The notes under the pieces were generated by a model. That model worked only from the letters and a program-made list of their open reading frames with translations, was not told the origin of the DNA and ran no database searches. Shown piece by piece: positions 1,166-17,649 of a stretch of 34,848 nucleotides of DNA. A program made the position numbers and the translations under genes. The DNA is taken from assembly GCA_023659775.1 (NCBI GenBank), contig JAGXOS010000004.1:1-34848 (forward strand). Reading direction: 5' to 3'. The first letter of the stretch is position 1. Each line of letters starts with the position of its first letter. This DNA comes from Methanomicrobia archaeon LH_S14. Its GTDB lineage: Archaea; Halobacteriota; Syntropharchaeia; Alkanophagales; Methanospirareceae.

Positions 1166-1551
1166 TCGTTATCTCCACTTTCTGTCAAAATATCGTCTCT
1201 ATCCTTGATTATTACCCTATCTTTCCTTTCGATTTCAGTAGTAACAAGAATGTATTCTCGGTGTTTGCAGATGGATACACCTTCCAATTCGCCCAAACCC
1301 AAAGATCTCCGTTCTTCTATCAATCTACTCAAAAGCTCTAATTCTTCTTTGTTTAGCGGCGTTACTTCGAGAATTCCGCTCTCTATGACTTAATCAACGA
1401 ATTCATACCCACGCTCTCTTGCTTTGAAAAGGTCATTGTAAACCGAAGGAGGAATAAAGAACCTTGCATTAGGAAATAACCCCCTTAATAAATCCAGCCT
1501 TTTTATCTTTCCGAAAGTGCTTAGAACATCAGTGTCAAAGACTAAACTCAT
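1162..1551 (-). pseudogene. PIN-domain (VapC/DUF3368-like) toxin with in-frame nonsense codon
   Basis: MSLVFDTDVLSTFGKIKRLDLLRGLFPNARFFIPPSVYNDLFKARERGYEFVD*VIESGILEVTPLNKEELELLSRLIEERRSLGLGELEGVSICKHREYILVTTEIERK; TAA at codon 54 (plus-strand 1390-1392), frame open on both sides. Confidence 0.65.
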
Positions 1552-1886
1552 CGCTTCAACCTTTTGATTAGTTCAACACCTTTCTCCAACTCCTCCACAC
1601 TCCTTGAGCCCACTTCTCTCCTTACCCCCCTATCTGCTAATATGTCTTTGAACTCGATTGTTGTTACTCCTGCGATCTCCGCGGCTTTGCCCAGCGATAC
1701 CACACCCTCTTTATAAAGTTCAATAGCCGCAGCCGTTCTAAGATCAGGCTTAGCATTTAGCAAAGTTCTAAAAGCATCTTTTACCGCCTCGTCAACGCTG
1801 CCATAATATCCGGATTTAATCAAAGCTCTTATTTCCTTTTCAATAATTGCAGGTAATGCAAATATTTCTGCCATTTTGTTTATCAC
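1548..1886 (-). CDS. UPF0175-type antitoxin, RHH-like N-terminus
   Basis: AIELYKEGVVSLGKAAEIAGVTTIEFKDILADRGV is the UPF0175 helix-turn-helix; its stop overlaps the PIN ORF start (ATGA). Confidence 0.7.
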   Translation of the reverse strand: MINKMAEIFALPAIIEKEIRALIKSGYYGSVDEAVKDAFRTLLNAKPDLRTAAAIELYKEGVVSLGKAAEIAGVTTIEFKDILADRGVRREVGSRSVEELEKGVELIKRLKR

Positions 1887-1962
1887 TTGATATATTTGTA
1901 GTCTTCTACCTTATATAAAACATTAATTTCCTTTGCACCCTTCCAACCCTTAGATTTCTTCC

Positions 1963-2088
1963 TTAGTCTATCCTGTGTTGAAATAGCATAGCATTCTCTA
2001 TTCTGCTTCTATCTCTCAATCTCGCTCCCATGATTATCTCTAATCTCTTTTCAACCACATTTATCTCATCCATTCTTCCCGCCTCCAT
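1963..2088 (-). other. short ORF or 5' stub, unknown
   Basis: MEAGRMDEINVVEKRLEIIMGARLRDRSRIENAMLFQHRID*; 41 codons, no family recognised. Confidence 0.2.
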
Positions 2089-2145
2089 TTTCTGTCACCT
2101 TTGATATGTCCTTTGATGTGTTTTAATTTATATATCTATGCATCT

Positions 2146-2226
2146 TTAATTTTCAATCACGAAAGCTTTTGGTAATGACAAGCCCACGTAGCCTAAGCCG
2201 ATGATGCAAACGGTTTCGTTTTTCAT
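2146..2226 (-). pseudogene. 5' stub of a UDP/GDP-sugar dehydrogenase
   Basis: MKNETVCIIGLGYVGLSLPKAFVIEN*: Rossmann GxGYVG N-terminus of nucleotide-sugar dehydrogenases, truncated at 26 aa. Confidence 0.6.
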
Positions 2227-2246
2227 ATCCCTTATTATCATTTATC

Positions 2247-2438
2247 TTACCTCAGCTCCAGAACTTTCTCTTTTCTTATATCCTCCCCTCTTGCCTTTTC
2301 AATGACTTCTTTCGCTGTCATGCCTTTAAATATCGCTCTTAGCGAGCCCTTTTCTTCAGAAATATCTGGAAATGGCTTGAGTAAAATGCCTTCCCCAGAC
2401 TCAACTACAATCGCTCTGTCCTTAAACCCAATTGGCAA
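2247..2438 (-). pseudogene. AbrB/MazE-like antitoxin, apparently N-terminally truncated
   Basis: LPIGFKDRAIVVESGEGILLKPFPDISEEKGSLRAIFKGMTAKEVIEKARGE resembles the C-terminal part of AbrB-type antitoxins; a TAA lies shortly upstream in frame. Confidence 0.4.
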
Positions 2439-2475
2439 AACTATTAAACCCGATTACCATCTACTTAAACATAAG

Positions 2476-3765
2476 ATGAAGTGGCTGGATAGAATCATTG
2501 GCACGGAGGAGATACCCTCCACGGTCTCCTTCGATGAAATAGATACCTGGCTGGACATGGTATCGAAATCGCTATTTCGCGGTCTGAGTGCAAATGCCGA
2601 TCAGTTATACGGAGAGATAAAAGATACACGTGAGAGACTGAAGCAAAACATCTCTGAGCTTCAGGATGCCGAACCAATTGAAGATATACCAGCTCCTATC
2701 ACAAAAATAGGATTGCCCAATCGTGATAAGATGGTTAAGCATCTCTATTCGCTGACTGAAAAGATGTTGATCCCGACCAAAACCGATTATAAGACTGTTT
2801 TATCCTTTTACAGCGTAACCGCTTCCAACATAGAATTCGCTTTTGGCAAGTCAAAGTCATCGAAGACCATCTACTATGTTCGCTCGCTATTCCCGGATGA
2901 GGTTAAGGAAGTTATCTCAGACATTGATCGATTGAAAGCCCTTCTTAACCAGCTTATCGCACCTATTAAGGGAAAAGAAAGCCAGATTATAAATTTTGAG
3001 CGTGTGCCAGAGATAGTACGAGAAATAAAAAATCTGAAATCGGGGATAGAAAAGGAAAAAGAGCAGGTCCACGAACAAGAAGAAGAGTGTTCCGTACTCG
3101 GTAAGAGAATCGAAATGGATGGGAAAAGATTGAGCGCGATTGAAGAAAAGGAAGAATGGATGCGATTCAAAGAGCTCGAAATCGAATTAGCTTCATCGGA
3201 AGAGGAATTAAACGCACTCGAATCGAATATCCACGAATTATTCTCTCCAATTAACAAAGCACTCAACCTGTTGAAGAAGCAGGATGAGACCGGGCGGTAT
3301 ACCCTTACTCCTGAAGAGAGAAGAGCGTTATCTTCTATTCTGTCATCTCCAATTCGAGCGCTCGATGAAGATATCCGCGATTTCCTCCTCTCCATAAAAA
3401 ATGTCATAGAAGGAGATGACTCTATCCTGAAGGAACGAAAGCGAGACAAGACACTGAAATGGATAGACCATCTGTTAAATACCGGGTTATCCCCTATCAA
3501 GGAAAAACGTGCTCGGTTACAATCGAGAATTAAAGAGACCAAAGGTAAGCTTTCGAATATGACGATACTCAAAGATAGAAAGGAGATCGAACGATCAATC
3601 ATTTCAGCTAAGGAGCAACTTGCTCAATTACAAGAAAGAATAGACCGATCTAAAAGACACATAGTTTCGCTGCAAGAGAAAGTCACAGAGAACGAGAGGT
3701 TTTTGTTAGAGGTTTTGGAAGGTATTACAGGTAAGAAAATTGATGTTAAATTTGATAGAGGGTAA
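2476..3765 (+). CDS. large coiled-coil protein, function unknown
   Basis: Long Glu/Lys/Arg-rich heptad-like segments; ATG at 2476 (MKWLDRIIGTEE) is more plausible than the 5'-most start because the upstream part overlaps the AbrB-like ORF. Confidence 0.55.
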   Translation: MKWLDRIIGTEEIPSTVSFDEIDTWLDMVSKSLFRGLSANADQLYGEIKDTRERLKQNISELQDAEPIEDIPAPITKIGLPNRDKMVKHLYSLTEKMLIPTKTDYKTVLSFYSVTASNIEFAFGKSKSSKTIYYVRSLFPDEVKEVISDIDRLKALLNQLIAPIKGKESQIINFERVPEIVREIKNLKSGIEKEKEQVHEQEEECSVLGKRIEMDGKRLSAIEEKEEWMRFKELEIELASSEEELNALESNIHELFSPINKALNLLKKQDETGRYTLTPEERRALSSILSSPIRALDEDIRDFLLSIKNVIEGDDSILKERKRDKTLKWIDHLLNTGLSPIKEKRARLQSRIKETKGKLSNMTILKDRKEIERSIISAKEQLAQLQERIDRSKRHIVSLQEKVTENERFLLEVLEGITGKKIDVKFDRG

Positions 3766-3769
3766 AAAA

Positions 3770-5989
3770 GTGAAAAGCCGAAGAAGAGATAGTGGAGTGA
3801 CATTTGTGCTCGTTATTCTATTCGCAACAACAATGGCATTTGGGTGCTTTGGATACTCTTCCACGGCAACAGTTCACGCACCTATCATTACAGGAGTATA
3901 TTATGACACCTATCTGAAAGGGGATACCGATGGTGAGTTTATAAGGATACATAATCCCACCGGGAGTTCAATCAACATCGGTGGATGGCAGATAACAGAT
4001 TATGGAGAAAGGGAGGGTGTTATTACATTTCCGGAATGGGCGAATATAAGTGCTGGAGATAGTTTATACCTTGCATATAACGCAACTGCATTTTATGACG
4101 AGATGTTTCAGGAAGCAGATTTTGAGTATGGTGTGGATTCTGACTCAACACCAAATATGACGAAAATGGATAAACAGCTAAAATTAGCCAATACAGGAGA
4201 TGAAGTAATCCTGAAGAATAACGAAGGCGAGATAATAGATGTTGTGATTTACGGTAACTCGATATATGCAGGAGCTGGATGGACCGATGCTCCTGTGAAA
4301 GATGTAGCTGAAGGCGTAATCTTAGAGCGGGACAGAAACGAGACATCCGGTGAGTATGAGGATACCGATTCAGCGGAGGATTGGAACGACCCCAGAGTAT
4401 ACGTTGTCGGGCAGTCGCACTTTTCTTATGAGACATTCAGTTTTTACGGAAATGTAACGGTGTTTACCTCTCCGGACAGCAGCTTTAGCGAGATTGCAAA
4501 TGCAATAGACAACGCACAAGAATCAATTTATCTCAATGTTTACCTGTTTCATAATTTCTATTTGATGAACCACATAATAGATGCGATAGAAAGGGGCGTT
4601 GAAGTCGAAATAATGCTTGAAGGCGACCCCGTAAATGGGATTGCCGATGATGAAAGGTATATTGCGAACCAAACCATTGCCACAGGCGGAGAAGTAAGGT
4701 TTATGATGAATGACAAAGACAGAGGTATTCATGACAGATATGCGTTCAACCATGCGAAATATGCAATTATAGACAACGAAAAGACGATAGTAATGTCAGA
4801 GAACTGGAAAAATACAGGTGTGCCCACCAACAACACTTTTGGGAACAGAGGTTGGGGTGTTATTATAAACAATCCGGATGTAACAAATTATTTCAGTGCG
4901 GTCTTCTTTGAAGACTGGAAGCCCACAAGCAAAGACAGTTTTCCATTTACTTCGGATGACCCCATTTATGGGAACAAATATGGTAGCCCTCCCCTCGATT
5001 TTGTGCCGAATCGCACAATCCCGACTGGCAATTACTCGCATCCGTTTGATAGCGAAGTTATTTATGGTGAGTTCGATGTTTCTCCAGTTTTAGCTCCTGA
5101 TACCTCGCTAATGCAGACAAAATCTATTATCGGGATGATAAAAGGAGCGAAGAAATCCGTTTATGTCGAGCAGCTTTATATCCACAAGGATTGGAGCTCC
5201 TATGCGGACCTAAAACCAAATCATTTCTTAGAGGCTGCGATCAACGCATCGAGGAGAGGATGTGAAGTAAAGATATTACTAAATCCAACATATAGTTTTG
5301 AGCGTAACCACGCGACAATCGATTATGTCAGGGGCATTGCAGCAAACGAAGGACTAAACTTAGATGTAAAATTTATTGATATTGAAAGCACAGGGCTTAA
5401 CAAAACACATAACAAAGGCGTGATTGTTGACTGCAGCAAAGTTTTGATTTCAAGTATCAACTGGAATGAGCATAGTCCAACAAATAACCGGGAAGCAGGT
5501 CTAATTATCGAAAATGAAGACGTAGCCGGGTTTTATACTGATGTGTTTTTATATGACTGGTATAACGGCTCGTTGCCACCAGAAGCTATCTTCGACACAG
5601 GACCAGGAACTTATCCAAGCATCTTTGGCATGCACAACGGAACGATTACGCTAAATCAAACAATAACCGTGAGCAAGCTTTACACTTATCCATGTACAGG
5701 CACAGGCGGGCATTCTGAACATGTGAGAATATGGAATAGTTCGGGCTTAGATGTAACGGCAAATTGGAAAGGTTACAAAAGGGATTGGCACAATATCTCC
5801 TTTAGCGGTTCATTCACCCTAAAGGCAAATGAAACTTACAATTATACGATTAAAACAGGCTCATATCCGCAGATGCATCACAACAAGACTTTAACCTTGC
5901 CAGAAGGAGAAATCAGATGCATTAAATTTACAGATGCGAATGAGAGGGTTTATTGTGACTGGATACCAGCTATTAAGCTGTGGACGTGA
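3770..5989 (+). CDS. secreted lamin-tail-domain + tandem phospholipase D-like (HKD) protein
   Basis: Signal sequence VKSRRRDSGVTFVLVILFATTMAFGCFG; LTD-like GEFIRIHNPTGSSINIGGWQITD; two HxKx4D motifs (HAKYAIID, HNKGVIVD). Confidence 0.8.
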   Translation: MKSRRRDSGVTFVLVILFATTMAFGCFGYSSTATVHAPIITGVYYDTYLKGDTDGEFIRIHNPTGSSINIGGWQITDYGEREGVITFPEWANISAGDSLYLAYNATAFYDEMFQEADFEYGVDSDSTPNMTKMDKQLKLANTGDEVILKNNEGEIIDVVIYGNSIYAGAGWTDAPVKDVAEGVILERDRNETSGEYEDTDSAEDWNDPRVYVVGQSHFSYETFSFYGNVTVFTSPDSSFSEIANAIDNAQESIYLNVYLFHNFYLMNHIIDAIERGVEVEIMLEGDPVNGIADDERYIANQTIATGGEVRFMMNDKDRGIHDRYAFNHAKYAIIDNEKTIVMSENWKNTGVPTNNTFGNRGWGVIINNPDVTNYFSAVFFEDWKPTSKDSFPFTSDDPIYGNKYGSPPLDFVPNRTIPTGNYSHPFDSEVIYGEFDVSPVLAPDTSLMQTKSIIGMIKGAKKSVYVEQLYIHKDWSSYADLKPNHFLEAAINASRRGCEVKILLNPTYSFERNHATIDYVRGIAANEGLNLDVKFIDIESTGLNKTHNKGVIVDCSKVLISSINWNEHSPTNNREAGLIIENEDVAGFYTDVFLYDWYNGSLPPEAIFDTGPGTYPSIFGMHNGTITLNQTITVSKLYTYPCTGTGGHSEHVRIWNSSGLDVTANWKGYKRDWHNISFSGSFTLKANETYNYTIKTGSYPQMHHNKTLTLPEGEIRCIKFTDANERVYCDWIPAIKLWT

Positions 5990-5995
5990 TAAAAA

Positions 5996-6023
5996 TTTCA
6001 ATTTGCACTTTTCATTTTGCATT
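5996..6023 (+). repeat. AT-rich convergent-gap repeat, copy A
   Basis: TTTCAATTTGCACTTTTCATTTTGCATT; 25/28 identical to copy B at 23857-23884. Confidence 0.6.
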
Positions 6024-6037
6024 GCTTTGACCAATTA

Positions 6038-6430
6038 TCACGATTTCCCCTCTCCCTCTTTTACCAATAGCTCCTCTATCGGTTTCGTCCCATACTCCTT
6101 TATCTTCACGTTTATCTGCGATATCTCCGTTGATATTTCGTTACCTCTGACCGACTTCCTTCTCCTTTTACCACGCTCTTTTGGTCTGTAACCCGGTGGA
6201 GAAGTGATTAAGATCCTCTTCCTCGCAGTCCCCGCCATATCTTTTCGCATTGGCATACCCTCTTTATCCGAGCCACCGGTTATTCCCAGCTCATAGCCGC
6301 CCAAGCCGAGAATATCCGCATCCACCGCGTCGCCTATTCGTTTACCAATGAATAAAACATTAGCTTCTGTATCCTTACCTTCTATCTTATATGCCTTCCC
6401 TGTTTTCGAGTCGCTTATTACAATTTGCAT
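6038..6430 (-). CDS. rps6e: 30S ribosomal protein S6e
   Basis: MQIVISDSKTGKAYKIEGKD...GKRIGDAVDADILGLGGYELGITGGSDKEGMPMRKD...RKSVRGNEIS is characteristic S6e. Confidence 0.95.
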   Translation of the reverse strand: MQIVISDSKTGKAYKIEGKDTEANVLFIGKRIGDAVDADILGLGGYELGITGGSDKEGMPMRKDMAGTARKRILITSPPGYRPKERGKRRRKSVRGNEISTEISQINVKIKEYGTKPIEELLVKEGEGKS

Positions 6431-6781
6431 TTTGTTCTTCCTTCTCCTTTATTTTATATTCTCATCTTCTAATAACTCTTTGAGTTCTCTTTAAACTTTT
6501 TCTTTATTCATAATTTGGTTCACTTTAAAAAAACGCATTCTTACCACCTCAGAAGCTTCAAAAGAGCCGGAAAGTCCCCAGACTGAGCGAAAGCAACCCA
6601 AATTCGGTTAATTGTTAAAAAGCATAATGAGAAATGCGAGGTAGGAGATGCATAAATTGGGGAAGTTGAAGAGAATACAAGTGCCAAAGCGGCGAAAGAG
6701 GAAGAGAGAAAATAACTGAAACGAAATTTCAACTGACCGAAAGTAATAAATGTTAGCTATGAAGTATGTTCTAAAAAATAA

Positions 6782-6789
6782 AAAATGTT
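6782..6789. repeat. target site duplication (left) AAAATGTT
   Basis: Identical 8-mer at 8364-8371 flanking the IS66-type element. Confidence 0.85.
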
Positions 6790-8363
6790 GTATCTATTCA
6801 GGTTTTTAAAGTTATTCCCTTTTGACAAAATAGCAGTTGCGAAGAATATCTTGGTTCAAAATGAGAAGTAATGTGTGAAAATCGTTAAAAACCGAAAATC
6901 ATAAAACTAATGAACACGAATTGAAAATGCAGAATGAACGGTGGCTACATAGTGATTATGGAGGATTTGCAGAGAGAAAACAGAGAACTAAGAGAAGAAG
7001 TCAATCGTCTGCGTAAAGGACTTGAAGAGAAGGAATCAAAGAACAAAGACCTGCAAGAAGAGGTTAACAAGCAGAAAGAAGAGATTAACGAATTAAAAGA
7101 GGAGAATCAAAAGTTAAGACAGGAGATTTTCGGCTTAAAATCATCCAAAAAGAGGAGACGAAGCTAGAACACAGACACAAAACAGAAACGTAAAAAGAGA
7201 GGACCTCCTTTTGGACACAAGGGAACTTCACGCAAGCGACCGGATAGAGTGGACACGACCATTGTCCTCGAGCTCGAGGAGTGCCCTTACTGCGGTGGGG
7301 AGCTCAAAGAATTGGAGGATGTGAGGGTGAGATATGAGGAAGAAATCATCCCTGTCCCCCTTTATGTGATCAAATACATCATCAAGCAGGGATATTGCAA
7401 GCACTGTGACAGGGTTGTTTATCCCGAAGTCCCTGAGACAATTGGTAATCGCCATTTTGGCGTTCGTTTCCTCCTTTATATCGCTTACCTGAGGTATGTC
7501 ATGAATTTGCCTGAAGGCAAGATTGCAACGCTCCTGAATGACACTTACAATGCTCACGTCTCGGTAGGAACGGTGGTTGACTACCTCAAAAAGGCTGCTG
7601 AACTGTTCGGTGATGAATACAAGCGTATAAAGAAGGAGATGCGGGAATCGCACATTTGCAACTACGATGACACAGGGCAGCGAGTGGACAGGAGGAACAG
7701 GTGGCTTTGGGCTTTTGTCTCAAAGGAAGCGGTGTTATATCTCACGAGCAAGAACCGGGGAAAGAAAGTGGTGATAAAAGTTCTCGGAGAAGACTATGAC
7801 GGTGTGAGCGGGCAGGATTTCTATCCCTCGTTCGACGGCGCGCCGGGACGGAAGCAGAAATGCTGGTCGCATCAGATAGTGCCTGCGAGGGAACTCACAG
7901 AGAAGAAAAAACCACCACCGGAATCACTCGAATTCTACGAAGGAATATCGCAGATTTTTGAGGATGCAAAGGAGGCAGAGAAGGCACTAAAAACCAGCGA
8001 GGATCGGGAAAGGGTGTATACCGACTTCGTTGAACGCCTGGAGAAGTTCGTGACGCAGGAGGGGAAATGGAAGCATCATGGAGTGAAAAAACTGGCGAAG
8101 CGGGCATTGAAGTACAGGCATGAACTGTTCACTTTCATACTCGTTCCTGGTGTGGACCCTACAAACAATGTCGCTGAGCGTGCTCTAAGACCGGGTGTGC
8201 GACAAAGGAAAATATGGGGATGCTTCAGAACCAAAAAGGGTGCTAAAAACAGGGATATCATGATGAGCGTGATAGGAACGATGAAAATCATGAAAAAGGA
8301 CTTCTTCAGCTACGGAAAGGAATATATCCTCAGCAAATTAAGTTATAAAAGGTGAATAGATAC
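6790..8363 (+). mobile_element. IS66-family insertion sequence, 1574 bp
   Basis: Terminal inverted repeats GTATCTATTCA (6790-6800) / TGAATAGATAC (8353-8363), 8-bp direct repeat AAAATGTT on both sides, IS66-type transposase inside. Confidence 0.88.
6934..8355 (+). pseudogene. IS66-family transposase (TnpC) with a single in-frame TAG
   Basis: N-terminal leucine-zipper ORF 6934-7167 and ORF 7249-8355 are in the same frame, separated only by TAG at 7165-7167; the intervening codons read NTDTKQKRKKRGPPFGHKGTSRKRPDR, a normal IS66 linker. Zinc finger CPYCGGEL and DDE region present. Confidence 0.85.
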
Positions 8364-8371
8364 AAAATGTT
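8364..8371. repeat. target site duplication (right) AAAATGTT, containing the drmA ATG
   Basis: Identical to 6782-6789. Confidence 0.85.
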
Positions 8372-11300
8372 GATGAAAAGTTGTTACAAAACTTTTGTTG
8401 CGATTCTGGAAAATGAGATACTTAGCAAACTTAACGGCACACATCCGAATTTTAAACGATTTGAAATCCCAGACAGCCCCTCAAAAATCATTATCTTAGG
8501 TACATTAGGTGATAAGAGCAAGGATTATTCTTCTTGCATTAGCGATACGACTCGAACATTAACAAGTGTAAAGAACAATTCAATGTCTGTAAAGTTCCGG
8601 ACAAAAGAAAACAAAGATGTCATAATGGTAAAGCCCTCATTATCTCTATATTACAGGGTTTACCCAACTTTAGAAGAAGAAAAAGCTTACATAAGCAAGG
8701 ATTACGCGGAGATACCAGAAAAAGTGGAACTTGCCAGGATTTGGAAAAGATACGATTGTGATTTTGAACCTTTTACAATCAATATTTCGAAAGCGCAATC
8801 GGAGTACCCTTTAAACTTCAAACCGCTCATAAGCACTATAAAAAATGACGGAAACATCTACAAAAGGGGAAAGGAAATAGAATCGAAATGCTTGGAAAAT
8901 CAAATCCTCTATGAAGATAAAATAAAAGAATTTAGTGTAGATAGTCCTTCAAACTACGATTGGAAAGGCACGTTTTTGGTTGAGACCGAAGACTTCTTTC
9001 AAGATAATGAGAAATTGAAATTTGTCACAATAACGATGGTTAATGAAACGGAGGAAAGCAATAAGTATGAGACATTTTTCTTCAATTGCAATTTTGAAAT
9101 AAACTCGCAGTCCGTGAAACTTGTGCCTTTCAAATATGAATATGGTTATGAAGAGCATAGTTACCACTACGAGAACTATTTAAGATGCTTAAACTGTCAC
9201 GCAGACTACGAAATAGAGAGAAATAGAATCTTGACAAAACATTATGCGAAATTCGAGCAAGAGAAGATAGTTCCGAAAGAAACAATAAACTCCACTTCCT
9301 TTTCCTTTGAGGAATTGGCATCAATGAAAAAGAATCTTGTCTTGCTGGAGAAATTATACGGCTTCATGCAAGATTATCTAACTTCACACAAGAATTCGCC
9401 AGGATATAGAGAAGATGAACGATACAAAGAGACCGTGGATAAGTTCGATGAAACAACGAAGAGGTTCTACGAGGGGTTAAATGTGCTTAAGAAAGATGAA
9501 AATGCGTTGAAATCATTTGAATTGCTAAACGAGACTTTCAAGCGTGCAAGCCGGTTTGATAAGTGGCGAATATTTCAGTTGGTCTTCATTTTAAGTCTTA
9601 TCCCCGATATTGTTGACAAAACAAAAAGAAGAGATATGTGTGAAATCCTCCATGTTCATACCGGCGGTGGTAAAACGGAAGCATATCTTGGCTGTGTGAT
9701 ATTTTCAGCGTTTTATGATCGCCTTTCGGGAAAAACATTTGGGACTACTGCAATTGCAAAGTTTCCCTTGAGAATGCTTTCTATCCAGCAACTTCAAAGA
9801 ATTGCCAGTTTATTTATATTGGCAGAAGAAGTTAGAAAAGAGAATAAAATAGAAGGAGAACCGTTTTCCGTCGCATATTTTGTTGGCTCAACAGAGGAAT
9901 TTCCCCGCTATACCAAGCCAATAATAGACAAGCTAAAGAAGGCGGAAAGAGAAAAAGAGGAAATAAGGGGAAAAATTGTTGATGTTTGTCCCTTATGTAG
10001 CGGGGATGTCATATTGGATTATAGAAGCAAAGAAAGGTATATCGTTCACAAGTGCAAAAATTGCGGTAGAGAATTCATGCTATTTTATACAGATGAGGAG
10101 ATATATAGGCTCTTGCCAACTCTGATAGTATCTACAGTTGACAAATTTGCGGGTATTGCGCTAAATAGGAGATTTAAAAACATTTTCGGTGGAAAAACAG
10201 ACAGATGCCCAGAAGGTCATGGATTCATACCTCATAACGATGTGTGTGAGGTGGGGTTGGGTGGTAATGAGAAATGCAAAAAGAAGGGCGAATTATGCGA
10301 TATAAACTTCAGAACAGGTCCCGCTCTTATAATTCAAGATGAAATGCACTTGATCCGTGAAGCCTTCGGCACAATCAATGCCCATTTTGAAAGTTTTATT
10401 GAAGCTTTACAAAACGAATTCTGCGGATATGCGCCTAAGCGGATAGCAATGACTGCCACGGTAGCGGGTGCTAAACACCAGATAGAGCATTTATATCACA
10501 AAAGAATCAACGTTTTTCCGGGTGAATCACCCGAAGGAAGAGGAAATAATGACTTCTTTTTCGAGTATGATTTAGAAGAAAATACAAAAGTCATTCAGAG
10601 GATCATGATTGGTTTAAAGCCGAATCTCAGGGATAACCAATTTGCTTCCTTATTAACGCTTAAATACCTCTCAGAATTTATCAATGACGTGGAAACACAT
10701 ATAGACCAATTCTCCCAGCAGTGGGGTATGGAAGTAGAAGAATTGAAGGAAATAATAGACAATTACAAAGTGTTTTTGACATACCATAACAAAAAGAGTG
10801 ATGTCCACTCTATGAACTATTATTTGGAAGCCGTGGTAAACTCTAAATTGGATAGTTATAAAATCAAACCAAAGACGTTAACCAGCGATAACACTTTAGA
10901 CGACATCAAAGAGTTAATTCGGGTAGTGGAAAACTTTTCCAGCGATTCAAAAAACAACGAAAACTTGCTATCCGTATTTGCTACGAGCATAGTCTCTCAT
11001 GGGATTGATATAGAGAAGTGGAACGTGATAATTTTTCAAGGTATTCCCAGAAGCACAGCGGAATATATTCAGGCATTGAGCAGGGTGGGCAGGAGATATC
11101 CCGGACTCGTATTCGTTTGGTTTTATCCTAGCAGGGCAAGAGACCTCAGCTTCTATCAAAATTTTGCTGATTATCATCACATCATAGAACAAAAGGTGGA
11201 AAATATTCCTTTATCCAGGTGGGCAAAACTTGGCTTTATGCAGACTTTCACATCGATTTTCAATGCAAGCATACTCAATTATATGTCAGAGGTGACTGGT

Positions 11301-11636
11301 GAGCCGATCTATAAAATTGACAAAGTAAACGAGATATTTGCTGACGATGAGAACAGAAAAAAGCTGATTGGATTCATCAAAAAGGCGTATATCACTGATT
11401 CAACAATGATAGGCGCTGATTATTTCAATGGCGAGATACCAAAAGAGACGGAAAAGAGGTTGGAGTATCTCAAAACATACACGGGTGGTGAAAAAAACTT
11501 CTTCCCAAATGCTTTGAAAGATTGTGAGGACAGGTATTACAAAACACAGTATGGAATGCGAGGGATACAAGACGAGATTATTTTAAAACCAAGCAGTACC
11601 GACCTTAATTTCCTTATAAAAGCTTTGGAGGGATAA
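8367..11636 (+). CDS. drmA: DISARM-like helicase DrmA
   Basis: Walker A HTGGGKTEAYLG, DEMH box (IIQDEMHLIREAFGT), SRVGRR motif VI, Cys4 insert CPLCSG...CKNCG; large SF2 helicase paired with a DUF1998 protein. Confidence 0.78.
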   Translation: MLMKSCYKTFVAILENEILSKLNGTHPNFKRFEIPDSPSKIIILGTLGDKSKDYSSCISDTTRTLTSVKNNSMSVKFRTKENKDVIMVKPSLSLYYRVYPTLEEEKAYISKDYAEIPEKVELARIWKRYDCDFEPFTINISKAQSEYPLNFKPLISTIKNDGNIYKRGKEIESKCLENQILYEDKIKEFSVDSPSNYDWKGTFLVETEDFFQDNEKLKFVTITMVNETEESNKYETFFFNCNFEINSQSVKLVPFKYEYGYEEHSYHYENYLRCLNCHADYEIERNRILTKHYAKFEQEKIVPKETINSTSFSFEELASMKKNLVLLEKLYGFMQDYLTSHKNSPGYREDERYKETVDKFDETTKRFYEGLNVLKKDENALKSFELLNETFKRASRFDKWRIFQLVFILSLIPDIVDKTKRRDMCEILHVHTGGGKTEAYLGCVIFSAFYDRLSGKTFGTTAIAKFPLRMLSIQQLQRIASLFILAEEVRKENKIEGEPFSVAYFVGSTEEFPRYTKPIIDKLKKAEREKEEIRGKIVDVCPLCSGDVILDYRSKERYIVHKCKNCGREFMLFYTDEEIYRLLPTLIVSTVDKFAGIALNRRFKNIFGGKTDRCPEGHGFIPHNDVCEVGLGGNEKCKKKGELCDINFRTGPALIIQDEMHLIREAFGTINAHFESFIEALQNEFCGYAPKRIAMTATVAGAKHQIEHLYHKRINVFPGESPEGRGNNDFFFEYDLEENTKVIQRIMIGLKPNLRDNQFASLLTLKYLSEFINDVETHIDQFSQQWGMEVEELKEIIDNYKVFLTYHNKKSDVHSMNYYLEAVVNSKLDSYKIKPKTLTSDNTLDDIKELIRVVENFSSDSKNNENLLSVFATSIVSHGIDIEKWNVIIFQGIPRSTAEYIQALSRVGRRYPGLVFVWFYPSRARDLSFYQNFADYHHIIEQKVENIPLSRWAKLGFMQTFTSIFNASILNYMSEVTGEPIYKIDKVNEIFADDENRKKLIGFIKKAYITDSTMIGADYFNGEIPKETEKRLEYLKTYTGGEKNFFPNALKDCEDRYYKTQYGMRGIQDEIILKPSSTDLNFLIKALEG

Positions 11637-11639
11637 CTT

Positions 11640-13469
11640 ATGGATGAAGAAGAAATAGGAAGAACGAGGTATGTGTTCCCCGCATACAGTGCATTATATC
11701 ACACAGTAAAGGGGCTGATATTCATGAGGGGCCGTTTTGCACATAAGGTAATATCTCTTTTGCCAGATGAGAACGACAGAAACTTAAAAATCAGTAACGA
11801 AAGGCGTCTGAAAGGCAAATTATTTAGCGAGATAATGAGAGCATATAACGCACGTATAGACAAGTACAAACTGCTCCTTCCGAAATTCGGGGATTCGAGA
11901 AAGGACGATGTTAAAATCGTTAAGTTTAAACTGGTTGGGAGTTTGGAAGAAGATGAGTCCGATTATAGTGGACTTTATATTGTGTCTCCAAGGACTTTTG
12001 TCTGCTCAAAATGTGGTGATTTTAGAGTGGTCCGCAAAGAGGAGTGGAATACTTTCAATCCTAATAAATGCAGGAATCCTGGATGCGATGGAAGATACGA
12101 GCAAGTTTCAATTGTCATGTTTTGCGAGCAGTGTGGGAAAATTGAGCCCTTATACTATTCGTGTAAAACCCATGGAAACAAACACATAAGGTTGATTAGG
12201 AAAGAGAAAGATTCTTTATTGACATGGAAGGTAGTTTGCCAGAAATGCTATGAAGAAGGAACTAAGGAACCGGTAGACATATTTAGATTTACTTGCAAAC
12301 ATTATGGATATAATGAAAGAATCTGTAACGAAAAAGAAAAGAAGTTCAAGCCTCTTACTATAAAAGAAGGCGGTATATATACCCCGGTAGTAATCACTTC
12401 AGTGGATATCCCTCCCACTGAGAGTATTCATCTGGAGGATTTAGAATACATTTTATTGGGTTTGCACCTTGGTAAGTTTGATAAACTATCGGAAAGAGCA
12501 GGGTCAGTAGATTTGGGGAAGATAGAAAGTTATTATCGTGCATATAACGATGAGAATCTCAGGCAGTTTCTTTCGTCTGATATAAAAGAATTTATCAACA
12601 TTACCGAGAATGCAGTTAGAGAATTGAAGATTAAATATGAGGGTGTTGATTTAGAAAACTTTAACGACTACTTTGCAGTTAAGAGCAAGGAAGCGAAAAG
12701 TTATGGCGAATATATCAAAGAGATGGAAGAGAGGGCAGGAAGAGCGTTTTTGGAACAAAATTACCAGAAATTAAAAGCTAAATATGGCATTGAAAACATC
12801 ACCTACATATCAAAAATCAATTTGGTATCCTCCTGCATAGGCATCATAAACGGCATAAACAAGTTTTATGAGCCGGGTTTTGTCCCTCATTTCAACCCTA
12901 TCTGGAAGAACGATAAGAAGAAAGATAAAATAATTGTATATGCGTATCCGTTTGAAACGGAGGGCGTGTTAATAGACCTGAATAAAAACCAGGTGTGTAA
13001 TTGGCTTATTGATAATGGCTTGATTGCGAATAAGAAGCCAGAAAGCGTTTCAGAAGCTAAGGAAACTCTTTTTGCCATTAAGAAAGATACGGAGGCATAC
13101 AAAGCGCTAAAAGCACTTTTACATACGTTGTCACATGTCTTGATACGGAGATCGTCCCTATACACCGGTCTTGATAGTGATTCTTGCGGCGAACTGATAT
13201 TTGTGAATCCTGCAGCTATTATGATTTATTCTACATCAAACATAAACATTGGTGGTTTCCAGTTCGTTTTCGAGCATTCTCTGGAAGATTGGTTTCGAGA
13301 AGTAGAATTTGATATTGAAGCTTGCACATTTGACCCTGCGTGTATTACTGAAGGGGGTGCTTGTTTTTCGTGTTTATATCTTCCAGAATATGTTTGCACG
13401 GAATTTAATCAATTTTTAGACAGAGATGTGTTCCTTGGCAGGAGGAGGTATAGTGTCGGATATTGGTAG
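11640..13469 (+). CDS. drmB: DUF1998-domain protein DrmB-like
   Basis: LLHTLSHVLIRRSSLYTGLDSDSCGELIF...ACTFDPACITEGGACFSCLYLPEYVC: DUF1998-type C-terminus; several CxxC pairs; 3 nt after drmA. Confidence 0.8.
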   Translation: MDEEEIGRTRYVFPAYSALYHTVKGLIFMRGRFAHKVISLLPDENDRNLKISNERRLKGKLFSEIMRAYNARIDKYKLLLPKFGDSRKDDVKIVKFKLVGSLEEDESDYSGLYIVSPRTFVCSKCGDFRVVRKEEWNTFNPNKCRNPGCDGRYEQVSIVMFCEQCGKIEPLYYSCKTHGNKHIRLIRKEKDSLLTWKVVCQKCYEEGTKEPVDIFRFTCKHYGYNERICNEKEKKFKPLTIKEGGIYTPVVITSVDIPPTESIHLEDLEYILLGLHLGKFDKLSERAGSVDLGKIESYYRAYNDENLRQFLSSDIKEFINITENAVRELKIKYEGVDLENFNDYFAVKSKEAKSYGEYIKEMEERAGRAFLEQNYQKLKAKYGIENITYISKINLVSSCIGIINGINKFYEPGFVPHFNPIWKNDKKKDKIIVYAYPFETEGVLIDLNKNQVCNWLIDNGLIANKKPESVSEAKETLFAIKKDTEAYKALKALLHTLSHVLIRRSSLYTGLDSDSCGELIFVNPAAIMIYSTSNINIGGFQFVFEHSLEDWFREVEFDIEACTFDPACITEGGACFSCLYLPEYVCTEFNQFLDRDVFLGRRRYSVGYW

Positions 13470-14781
13470 GGTTGAGTTGAGGGAATGGTATGGGTCAAGT
13501 ACATCAATATGCACTTATAATCCACGCCAAAGAGTATCTCCTGGAAATGTAGAACTTTCAGGTATTTTAAGCCCATTAACTAATTTTTTCTTAAATGTTT
13601 TCGTAAATGCTATTGAAGAACGAAATCTCATCATTGCAATCCCTGATGTGGTTTTAAGACCCATTCCTATCATTTCATACTTATATGCGAAGCAAAAGAA
13701 CAAAAGTGTAGTCGTATTTACGATTGCACGTGACTTTCACTATAAAAATTATCACCTTCTTAATCAACCTGGTTTCGGATATCTTTCTTTCTTTGTCCCT
13801 ATGGGTTTTATATCTGAAGAGGGTATAGACGCGAAGGTTTACCTGCCGCGAGCGAGTAAAGAATATAGACAGGAATATATTCAACACTTAAGAGAGAATT
13901 TTTTAGAAAGCCCCGAACCAAAGATATTATTATCTCAAGGAGATAGAATGGTTGATGATATAATCAAAAAACTCGTAATAGACGAAGAGACATTTGATAA
14001 TGTAGAAGTTGGAATTGATACAGGGCTTATTATTTTTGAAAATGTTGACAGATTAGTTCATTCTCAATACAGCACAGAACTCTTTTTAAAGTGGCTGTCT
14101 CCATTGTTGGATAGAGGGGTGCGTTTTATTTTTCATTTTGCCAATCCAGAGTCGATGTTTATCCAAACAATTAAAGAAAAAACAAATTCATTGGTAGTGC
14201 CGTTTGGGACCGCTGTGCTGAGAAGCAATGCAGAAATCCAGAGAAGATCAATTGATGAGTATTTCGGAAAGATAGACGAAGATGGTAAGAGAAGAGCAGA
14301 ACTGATACTGATAAATAAATACAACATTGACAGGGAATACTTTTACGAGAACATAACATCTATTGAAATAGTAGAGTTAAAGGCTGGAAATATTGATTAT
14401 CACCTCAGAAATGCAAAGGAGGTTTTATCAAAGATAGACGAGAACAGGATAAAGAATAAAAGATTGTATTATACCGTGAAAAGCTTGCTGTACACACTGC
14501 CAAACTTTGTAATTAACCCGTCTAAATACAAGAACCCTTACGAAGATGATTTTGTTGGATGGCGTTCTTACACAATACCGCAACTGCTGGGTATGTTAAG
14601 AGAACGCGTATTTGAAGAAAGCAAAGATAACATTGTATTTTTGGAGGATTTGATATCGGAAATATATTGCGTATACGCCGAGTTAAAAGAGTGCAGGAGA
14701 TATGGAGAAGAGAAAACATATTCTCGCATTGCGAAGGACTACCAGATATTTAAAACGATTGGAAATTTTTGGGATTCATAA
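13453..14781 (+). CDS. uncharacterised DISARM-neighbour protein, possibly DrmE-like
   Basis: Overlaps the drmB 3' end by 17 nt (GTG start at 13453). Contains GLIIFENVDRL, a Walker-B-like strand, but no P-loop was seen. Confidence 0.5.
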   Translation: MSDIGRVELREWYGSSTSICTYNPRQRVSPGNVELSGILSPLTNFFLNVFVNAIEERNLIIAIPDVVLRPIPIISYLYAKQKNKSVVVFTIARDFHYKNYHLLNQPGFGYLSFFVPMGFISEEGIDAKVYLPRASKEYRQEYIQHLRENFLESPEPKILLSQGDRMVDDIIKKLVIDEETFDNVEVGIDTGLIIFENVDRLVHSQYSTELFLKWLSPLLDRGVRFIFHFANPESMFIQTIKEKTNSLVVPFGTAVLRSNAEIQRRSIDEYFGKIDEDGKRRAELILINKYNIDREYFYENITSIEIVELKAGNIDYHLRNAKEVLSKIDENRIKNKRLYYTVKSLLYTLPNFVINPSKYKNPYEDDFVGWRSYTIPQLLGMLRERVFEESKDNIVFLEDLISEIYCVYAELKECRRYGEEKTYSRIAKDYQIFKTIGNFWDS

Positions 14782-15700
14782 AGGTGCTGAGAAATACGCT
14801 AATAACCACACTTTAGATTACTCGATACTTAGCAATCCAAGCCCTATTGATTATCAGATAATTCACACTACTAGAGGCTGTCCCAGAAACTGTGAATTTT
14901 GTGGAACTTGGAAAATTGAACCAAAATTTGAATCAAAGAAAAGTATTCGAGATGAAATAATCAAAAGAAAGATTGTCTTTTATGATAACAACCTCTTAAA
15001 AAGTCAATATATAGAAGATATTCTAAACGAACTTATTACGTTGAAACAAGAGAGGAAAATTTTGTGGTGTGAATCGCAAAGCGGATTCGATGGCAGAGTG
15101 CTAAAAGAAAAACCATATTTAGGGAAAATGCTTAAAAAGGCGGGCTTTCGCTATCCAAGAATCGCTTGGGATTGGGGATACAACCAATTTAAAGAGATTA
15201 AAGAGCAGATTGATATTTTAGTTGCAGGAGGTTACAAGTTCAAAGATATTTACATCTTCATGCTTTACAACTGGGATATACCTTTTGAGGAGATGGAGAG
15301 GAAGCGAATAAAATGCTTGGAATGGAAGGTTCAGATTGCAGATTGCAGGTATAGACCTTTAGTCCAAATTAGCGATAAATATAATCCTCGGAAAGAGCAA
15401 ACAAATAAAGATTATCATATTCATACAGAAGCGGGCTGGACCGATGCACTTGTTAAACAATTTAGAAAGAATGTGAGACGACAAAATATCTGTGTAAGGC
15501 ATGGCGTTCCGTTTTATTCCAGGAATTTTGAGCGTAAGAGAGTTGAAAAAGAAGTGATGAAGAGAGTTAAACATATGGCGACAAAGGAAGAGAAAATAAA
15601 TTATTTGCAACAAATAAAAGCAGATTATTGGTTCCCTGATGAAATTACATATCATGAACAGGTTCAAATTCAGCGCCCAGACTTCCCCTTCCCCATCTGA
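14702..15700 (+). CDS. radical SAM protein lacking an N-terminal B12-binding-type domain
   Basis: TTRGCPRNCEFCGTWKIEP has the Cx3Cx2C motif; FYDNNLLKSQYIEDIL and WKVQIADCRYRPL are further radical-SAM core features. Confidence 0.75.
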   Translation: MEKRKHILALRRTTRYLKRLEIFGIHKGAEKYANNHTLDYSILSNPSPIDYQIIHTTRGCPRNCEFCGTWKIEPKFESKKSIRDEIIKRKIVFYDNNLLKSQYIEDILNELITLKQERKILWCESQSGFDGRVLKEKPYLGKMLKKAGFRYPRIAWDWGYNQFKEIKEQIDILVAGGYKFKDIYIFMLYNWDIPFEEMERKRIKCLEWKVQIADCRYRPLVQISDKYNPRKEQTNKDYHIHTEAGWTDALVKQFRKNVRRQNICVRHGVPFYSRNFERKRVEKEVMKRVKHMATKEEKINYLQQIKADYWFPDEITYHEQVQIQRPDFPFPI

Positions 15701-17475
15701 TCTAAACTGGATTTTCTTTTTCTCCTAATTTCCAACAATTCCTCCAGCACCTCTTCCTCATCCACCGACAACAAACCACTTAGCATTTTCATTTCTTTTA
15801 TTTCTTCTTCACTAATATACACATATAAAACATCATTCTCATTTATTTGCCGCCCTACCGTTGGTTTCTTCATTGAAATTGCCACCTGCATCCCCTGCCC
15901 TGCACTTTTTATGCTCTCTCCTTTATCCTGTATCTCATTTATCGCTCCGACACCTGTTCCATCCGCTTTTATCAATTCCACACCCGTTTTTATCTTACCG
16001 CCCAGAACTTCTACACCCACAATAGCAGGCTTACTTTGCCTGAATACACATCCCGGCAGTATTTTTATCTTAGCAGGAATGGTCAGCCTATCCATGAACT
16101 CACGCTTCTCTTTCTCGCGCTCCTGCTTCGCCCAGTTCTTATAATCTTCTATCAACCGGTAAATAACATCGCTTATAAATACCGGGATGTGGTTTTCCAA
16201 AGCCGCTTCTTTTGCATCCGGCAGTATATCAACGTTAAAGCCAAAAATAGCCCTGAAATAACAATTCTTAACCGTAGTAGCGTCTATAACATCCCTTTTA
16301 GATATATTCCCGACTTCTGCTTTTTTTATTTCCTCTATCTCTTCTCCTTTCAGCTCCAGAGCAAGTGCTTCCAGTGAGCCCATTGTATCCGCCTTTATGA
16401 TTATTCCTTCCGGGCTTGTCTCCATCCTCATCTCCTCTATCTCGCCCTTCATCTCTTTTATCACGTTCTCGAGTTTCTCCTCTACTTCAACCACTCTCAC
16501 CTGCGAACCTGGAAGCGCATTTTCTATATCGGGAGCTACTATTTTCACGCCAGAAGCAGCATTCACCGTTCTTACTCGCTCAAATCTTTGCTCCACCCTT
16601 ATCTCTTGCAAAGCTCTCGGCTTTAACAACGCCTTCACCTTTGTAACTATTGGCTCCTCCTCAGTGCTTCCCACCACGATTGTATCGCCCACGCCGATCT
16701 TTCCATCGTATAATATCACGTCAATCGTGGTTCCGAGCCCTCTCTCCTCCTCCTTTTCTAATATCGTACCAACACCAGCCTCTTCTAAATGAAGACGCAA
16801 GGTTCTTTCAAAGAACTTCTGCGATAATCCTATTAAAACAAGTAGCAAATCCGCAATTCCTTCCCCGGTCTTCGCACTCACCGGCACAATGCACACATTC
16901 CTTGAATAGTCTTTTATCCGGTCGTACCTCTCAGCCGAGAATCCTTTATCGTAAAGCTCACCCACTATTTCATATATTCTCGCATCCAGTTCCTTTCTCG
17001 CATATTCCGGCTGGTCTTTATAACCGATAATAAAAGGCGTTTTCTTTGAATCCCACCCCTTTATCCGGTCTATTTTATTCAACGCGACAACAAAAGGCGT
17101 TTTTAATAATCTTAAGATGTTTAACGATTCATGAGTCTGCGGCAGAAAGCCCTCCATCACGTCCACTACCACCACTGCGACATCAGCCAAAGCACTTCCT
17201 CTTTTCCTCAGGCTCGCGAAGGCATGATGCCCGGGGGTATCAATAAAAAGCAAACCAGGAACTTCTATTCCCGCCCAGTCCCTTTTTAGCGGCTTACAAA
17301 TCTCTTTTATCGTATCAATTGGTATTTCCGTTGCTCCTATATGCTGCGTTACTCGACCTGCTTCCTTCGCTGCTATCGCAGTGCCCCTTATAGAATCAAG
17401 TAAAGTGGTCTTCCCATGGTCTACATGTCCCAGTACAGAGAGAATAGGCGTTCTTATTTCGCTCTTTGTGCTCAT
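15670..17475 (-). CDS. infB: translation initiation factor aIF5B (IF-2)
   Basis: TPILSVLGHVDHGKTTLLDSIRGTAIAAKEAGRVTQHIGATEIP, FIDTPGHHAF, NKIDRIKGW; start MSTKSEIR at 17475. Confidence 0.96.
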   Translation of the reverse strand: MSTKSEIRTPILSVLGHVDHGKTTLLDSIRGTAIAAKEAGRVTQHIGATEIPIDTIKEICKPLKRDWAGIEVPGLLFIDTPGHHAFASLRKRGSALADVAVVVVDVMEGFLPQTHESLNILRLLKTPFVVALNKIDRIKGWDSKKTPFIIGYKDQPEYARKELDARIYEIVGELYDKGFSAERYDRIKDYSRNVCIVPVSAKTGEGIADLLLVLIGLSQKFFERTLRLHLEEAGVGTILEKEEERGLGTTIDVILYDGKIGVGDTIVVGSTEEEPIVTKVKALLKPRALQEIRVEQRFERVRTVNAASGVKIVAPDIENALPGSQVRVVEVEEKLENVIKEMKGEIEEMRMETSPEGIIIKADTMGSLEALALELKGEEIEEIKKAEVGNISKRDVIDATTVKNCYFRAIFGFNVDILPDAKEAALENHIPVFISDVIYRLIEDYKNWAKQEREKEKREFMDRLTIPAKIKILPGCVFRQSKPAIVGVEVLGGKIKTGVELIKADGTGVGAINEIQDKGESIKSAGQGMQVAISMKKPTVGRQINENDVLYVYISEEEIKEMKMLSGLLSVDEEEVLEELLEIRRKRKSSLDQMGKGKSGR

Positions 17476-17649
17476 ACCTTTCACATCCTTCTTTTTATAT
17501 TGAACTTGATAATTATATTTTAAAAGAAAATAACAATCAACAATCGAAAAGCTTATATATACCCTTGTGATATGCACAAGGGGATATTATTATAAACGAT
17601 TTTCATGCTGTTATGAGAATTACTGACGAAGGGGGTTACTCAGCTTTTC

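What the first reader, a model, noticed from the sequence alone, without database searches (positions are those of the whole stretch)
6782..8371. IS66-type element inserted exactly at the drmA start codon; the target duplication carries the ATG
Seen: 11-bp perfect terminal repeats (GTATCTATTCA/TGAATAGATAC) bounded by identical AAAATGTT 8-mers. The right copy supplies ATG at 8367, so the drmA reading frame is regenerated while its native upstream region now lies 1.57 kb away beyond the element. Inference: the insertion spared the protein but replaced the promoter/leader, which could silence the system or place it under IS control.
Basis: partly seen in the sequence, partly recalled or inferred. 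Interest (0 to 1): 0.65.

Follow-up and report, generated by a model that had tools for sequence, protein, structure and literature searches.

The report
Jumping gene beside archaeal defence gene
A common type of bacterial and archaeal jumping gene landed exactly on the start codon of an antivirus (DISARM-like) gene in a methane-oxidising archaeon, rebuilding the start codon but leaving the gene's old promoter 1.57 kb away; the event is well supported and ordinary in kind, and the defence cluster carries a second, unrelated lesion.

Summary
A 1,574-bp IS66-family (ISBst12-group) element occupies 6790-8363. It has perfect 11-bp inverted repeats and an 8-bp duplication, AAAATGTT, whose right copy carries the ATG of drmA. 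The host is an ANME-1 archaeon. A relative in another genus (GoMg2) has the same rpS6e/drmA junction without the element, which gives the empty site. A congener's copy of the element has a different 8-bp duplication, so the 8-mers are target sequence. A second drmA homologue supports the duplicated ATG as the real start.

The best conserved stretch of the old upstream region (28 bp, promoter-like) now lies beyond the element. The element's right end supplies AGGTGA, a Shine-Dalgarno-like sequence. The likeliest outcome is that drmA is now the second gene of a transposase transcript, at altered and probably reduced level; expression was not measured.

The transposase has a TCG-to-TAG nonsense codon, so this copy probably cannot move on its own. 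A 1,607-bp deletion further down removes the C-terminal half of drmE and the start of a radical-SAM gene, so the cluster is probably decaying whatever drmA's promoter does. Ordinary event, well documented; interest low to moderate.

The parts
6724..6751 (+). 28-bp block AAATTTCAACTGACCGAAAGTAATAAAT, candidate native drmA promoter (BRE/TATA-like), now left of the element
   Evidence: 26/28 identical to GoMg2 at 33 nt (window) and 25 nt (GoMg2) from the ATG; best of 60 shuffles 21/28
6782..6789 (.). left target-site duplication AAAATGTT
   Evidence: congener copy has a different duplication, ATAAACTT
6790..8363 (+). IS66-family (ISBst12-group) insertion sequence, 1574 bp
   Evidence: ends shared with copies in other ANME-1 genomes; transposase family
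6790..6800 (.). left terminal inverted repeat GTATCTATTCA
6934..7167 (+). 5' part of the transposase gene (77 aa, coiled-coil-like N-terminus) ending at TAG 7165-7167
   Evidence: L016 and L022 are open at this point; TCG in L016
7168..8355 (+). rest of the transposase frame (zf-IS66 and DDE_Tnp_IS66), stop TGA 8353-8355 inside the right inverted repeat
8350..8355 (+). AGGTGA, Shine-Dalgarno-like sequence supplied by the element, 11 nt before ATG 8367
   Evidence: GGTGA present in all 12 right ends examined; 16S 3' end GGATCACCTCC in congener G001
8353..8363 (.). right terminal inverted repeat TGAATAGATAC
8364..8371 (.). right target-site duplication AAAATGTT, carries the drmA start codon
8367..11636 (+). 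drmA-like helicase gene (1089 aa)
   Evidence: PADLOC DrmA E 1.9e-114; 94% identical in GoMg2
11640..13469 (+). drmB-like gene (609 aa)
   Evidence: PADLOC DrmB E 2.6e-28
13426..14781 (+). drmE-like gene truncated by a deletion at about 14766 (451-codon frame against 862 in GoMg2; DrmE_C domain lost)
   Evidence: comparison with GoMg2 and PF24957 in the longer homologue
14767..15700 (+). 3' remainder of a radical-SAM gene, its first ~118 codons removed by the same deletion

Best explanation
An ISBst12-group IS66 element transposed into the AT-rich start region of an ANME-1 drmA gene and duplicated 8 bp that include the ATG (shown). The DrmA protein is therefore unchanged, but the promoter-like block that lay about 35 nt upstream is now 1.6 kb away (position shown, promoter function inferred). 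drmA most likely survives as the second cistron of a transcript that runs through the transposase gene from the native promoter or the element's own promoter; the AGGTGA in the element's right end, overlapping the transposase stop, could serve as its ribosome-binding site (inferred). Expression is probably altered and lowered rather than abolished (inferred). The element itself is probably stuck because its transposase carries a nonsense codon, and the whole cluster is probably losing function because drmE is truncated.
For: Perfect inverted repeats and duplication. Same rpS6e-drmA junction without the element in GoMg2. Congener copy with its own duplication ATAAACTT. IS66 transposase above the curated cut-off. 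Conserved 28-bp block left of the element. No T-run of more than 5 inside the element on the + strand, so no strong T-tract stop between the native promoter and drmA is evident. GGTGA in all 12 right ends and a matching 16S tail in the congener. TAG replacing TCG, relatives open there, no pyrrolysyl-tRNA synthetase above cut-off in the genome. drmE deletion. Precedent: an IS placed upstream of a promoterless gene expressed it by read-through of the transposase transcript or an internal promoter (PMC8024623).
Against: No RNA data. The 11-nt gap between AGGTGA and the ATG is on the long side. Untranslated stretches after the TAG could reduce transcription downstream. The promoter block is supported by only two sequences. 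The genome bin is 66% complete, so pylS absence and missing drm genes elsewhere are not firm; a misassembly cannot be excluded without reads, though the only other copy found is a 91%-identical fragment.
Confidence: 0.6

Rival explanations
1. The insertion silenced drmA: the native promoter is cut off, read-through is negligible, and the system is an unexpressed remnant.
For: Promoter candidate displaced; drmE truncated in the same cluster, consistent with lost selection; G032 carries only a 99-codon drmA remnant, so the family does lose this system.
Against: drmA and drmB are fully open in the window and drmA dN/dS against GoMg2 is 0.29, though most of that divergence may predate the insertion; no strong T-tract terminator seen in the element.
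Confidence: 0.28
2. The element's right end acts as a promoter of its own: TTATAAAA at 8343-8350 starts a leaderless or nearly leaderless drmA transcript.
For: TATA-like 8-mer centred about 20-27 nt before the two candidate ATGs; archaeal TATA boxes are centred near -27 and short leaders are common (PMC5316973).
Against: The motif is shared by only one other copy examined (L043) and absent in the rest (e.g. GTTAAAAAAGG, TCTCAAAAAGG); AT-rich sequence makes it likely by chance; the expected start would fall at or past ATG 8367, so only ATG 8373 would be fully included.
Confidence: 0.08
3. Assembly artefact joining an IS copy to drmA.
For: Metagenome bin in 243 contigs; IS elements often break or mislead assemblies.
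Against: Both flanks are homologous to one continuous stretch in GoMg2, the duplication is perfect, and no near-identical second copy exists in the bin.
Confidence: 0.04

Closest known systems
ISDge4 (Deinococcus geothermalis), ISBst12 group of the IS66 family (PMC12898284)
   Same: single transposase gene; inverted repeats GTGACTACTCAGCA/GTAACTGCTCAGCA close to GTATCTATTCA; 8-bp direct repeat
   Different: archaeal host; transposase interrupted by TAG here; inserted at the start codon of a gene, not inside it
IS insertions that re-express a promoterless gene in Geobacillus kaustophilus (PMC8024623)
   Same: IS immediately upstream of a gene; transposase transcript reads on into it
   Different: other IS families; expression was measured there, not here
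DISARM (DrmA/DrmB core, PMC9142583)
   Same: adjacent drmA and drmB homologues, drmE homologue next
   Different: no methyltransferase and no drmC in the cluster; DrmA and DrmB score below the NCBIfam cut-offs; a radical-SAM gene follows

Membership tests
IS66 family | DDE transposase of the IS66 type with zf-IS66 domain | tested here: met
   PF03050 E 2.3e-36, PF13005 E 1.1e-9; NF033517 268 bits against cut-off 180
IS66 family | 8-bp target duplication | tested here: met
   AAAATGTT here, ATAAACTT in the congener copy
IS66 family, ISBst12 group | single transposase gene without tnpA/tnpB | tested here: met
   only one coding frame of size in 6790-8363; group description from PMC12898284
IS66 family, ISBst12 group | inverted repeats resembling those of a known group member (GTAACTGCTCA of ISDge4) | tested here: met
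   GTATCTATTCA against GTAACTGCTCA: 8 of 11 positions by eye
IS66 family | intact, active transposase (needed for mobility, not for membership) | tested here: not met
   in-frame TAG at 7165-7167 where the congener has TCG; no pylS above cut-off in the genome
DISARM | drmA and drmB core genes | tested here: met
   PADLOC DrmA E 1.9e-114, DrmB E 2.6e-28
DISARM | scores above NCBIfam curated cut-offs for DrmA/DrmB | tested here: not met
   DrmA 349 of 950 bits, DrmB 85 of 240 bits
DISARM | DNA methyltransferase drmMI or drmMII in the operon | tested here: not met
   none among the genes between rpS6e and infB in the window or GoMg2; one could lie elsewhere in the genome
DISARM class 2 | intact drmE | tested here: not met
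   GoMg2 homologue scores above the DrmE_fam cut-off, but the window's gene is truncated

The most novel reading that the evidence does not exclude
The right end of this archaeal IS66 group is a portable translation-start module: a conserved GGTGA at the transposase stop lets a gene whose start codon is captured in the target duplication become the translated second cistron of the transposase operon.
Probability: 0.2. Interest if true: 0.45.

Novelty: new member of a known kind. Interest (0 to 1): 0.27.

Why it matters
It is a clean natural case, with a matching empty site, of an insertion element rewiring an archaeal defence gene without touching its protein, and it shows an ANME-1 defence cluster that appears to be decaying. 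The general phenomenon is well known, so its value is as a documented example and as a caution that a complete-looking drmA frame does not mean a working system.

Tried and rejected
TAG read as pyrrolysine: rejected, no pylS hit over cut-off in the bin (26 bits against 178) and relatives have a sense codon there; the bin is only 66% complete. The 8-mers as part of the element: rejected, the flanks differ between copies. GTG 8352 or ATG 8373 as the drmA start: less likely, since G032 has ATG only at the 8367 equivalent. Several other element copies (L026, L041, L027) showed no clear duplication and appear degenerate; L022 shows 6 of 8. A paper search for DISARM in ANME-1 found nothing on point. 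No description of this insertion was found in the searches made. One protein-family call failed for a wrong frame and was rerun without that protein.

Full report
What is there. The element at 6790-8363 has 11-bp perfect inverted repeats and is bounded by AAAATGTT on both sides. The right copy gives the ATG at 8367 and an open frame to 11636. The genome is a metagenome bin of 1.63 Mb, 66% complete; the closest named relative of the drmA region is ANME-1 cluster archaeon GoMg2. In the whole bin the 11-mer occurs three times, all at this element or at the end of a 304-bp, 91%-identical fragment on another contig.

Insertion shown by the empty site. GoMg2 (QBUM01000179.1, L044), placed in another genus of the same family, has rpS6e on the minus strand followed by drmA on the plus strand, as in the window, with 315 bp between them and no element. 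Joining the window's two flanks gives ...aaataaaaaATGTTGATGAAAAG; GoMg2 reads ...gtttaaagaATGTTaATGAAAAG. The congener G001 carries a 90%-identical copy with its own 8-bp duplication ATAAACTT, so the 8-mers are target DNA. Other copies in the family share the ends and differ in the flanks.

Start codon. Three in-frame starts exist around the junction: GTG 8352 inside the element, ATG 8367 and ATG 8373. GoMg2 has both ATGs; the G032 remnant has only the one that aligns with 8367. ATG 8367 is therefore the best supported, so the duplication does carry the start codon.

What the insertion moved. The region between rpS6e and drmA is poorly conserved between the two genomes except for a 28-bp block with 26 matches, 33 nt before the ATG in the joined window and 25 nt in GoMg2; shuffled sequences reached at most 21. 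It contains CGAAAG followed by TAATAAAT, a BRE/TATA-like arrangement at a distance that would give the short leader usual in archaea (PMC5316973). That this is the drmA promoter is inference. It now lies left of the element.

What the element brings. The transposase frame ends with TGA at 8353-8355, inside the right repeat. AGGTGA at 8350-8355 lies 11 nt before ATG 8367. GGTGA is present in all 12 right ends examined, and the 16S 3' end in congener G001 reads GGATCACCTCC, complementary to it. The native leader has no such motif. A TATA-like TTATAAAA at 8343-8350 is shared by only one other copy and may be chance. There is no T-run longer than five on the plus strand inside the element.

The element is probably immobile by itself. 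TAG at 7165-7167 interrupts the transposase between its N-terminal part and the zinc-finger/DDE part. The congener has TCG there and a fully open 476-codon frame. No pyrrolysyl-tRNA synthetase over the cut-off was found in the bin.

State of the defence cluster. The genes after the element are drmA, drmB and a drmE homologue, then a radical-SAM gene. Against GoMg2 the window lacks 1,607 bp at 14766, which cuts the drmE frame from 862 to 451 codons, removes its DrmE_C domain, and removes the start of the radical-SAM gene. GoMg2's drmB has a frameshift, which may be an assembly error, and G032 keeps only 99 codons of drmA. DrmA and DrmB score below the NCBIfam cut-offs and no methyltransferase was found in the cluster, so I call it DISARM-like.

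Origin of the cluster. infB and rps6e are neighbours in many relatives; in the window and in GoMg2 the drm genes sit between them. drmA has dS 0.09 between the two genomes while rpS6e has 1.03, which suggests that the cluster was exchanged between lineages after they separated; the element is absent from the GoMg2 copy. Since most drmA divergence may predate the insertion, its dN/dS of 0.29 does not say whether drmA is still used.

Verdict. The event is real and well documented. The most likely present state is read-through expression of drmA at changed, probably lower, level, in a cluster already losing function; silencing is the main rival and only RNA or protein data can separate them. The kind of event is familiar, so interest is modest.

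Noticed in passing
window 14766 (GoMg2 L044 7571-9178): 1,607-bp deletion relative to GoMg2 truncates drmE and the radical-SAM gene; no repeat at the junction beyond a base or so.
   Followed up: partly
window 6038-17577: The drm cluster lies between rps6e and infB, which are neighbours in many relatives; drmA dS 0.09 against rpS6e dS 1.03 between window and GoMg2 suggests horizontal exchange at the same locus.
   Followed up: partly
L083 (G056:C2) 1507-12094; L044 8823-10079: A radical-SAM gene (B12-binding in G056) follows the DISARM-like genes in a distant relative (41% DrmA) too: drmA, drmB, drmC-like PLD, 1060-aa protein, radical SAM. It may be a regular part of this archaeal variant.
   Followed up: partly
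L044 4447-6277: GoMg2 drmB is split by a frameshift; real lesion or assembly error not resolved.
   Followed up: no
L006 1501-1800 (G032:C51): 99-codon remnant of drmA, 76% identical over 95 residues, followed by unrelated genes.
   Followed up: partly
window 3740-5989: 749-aa protein with two PLD domains and a lamin-tail domain, weak DrmC resemblance, upstream of rpS6e; relation to the cluster unclear.
   Followed up: no
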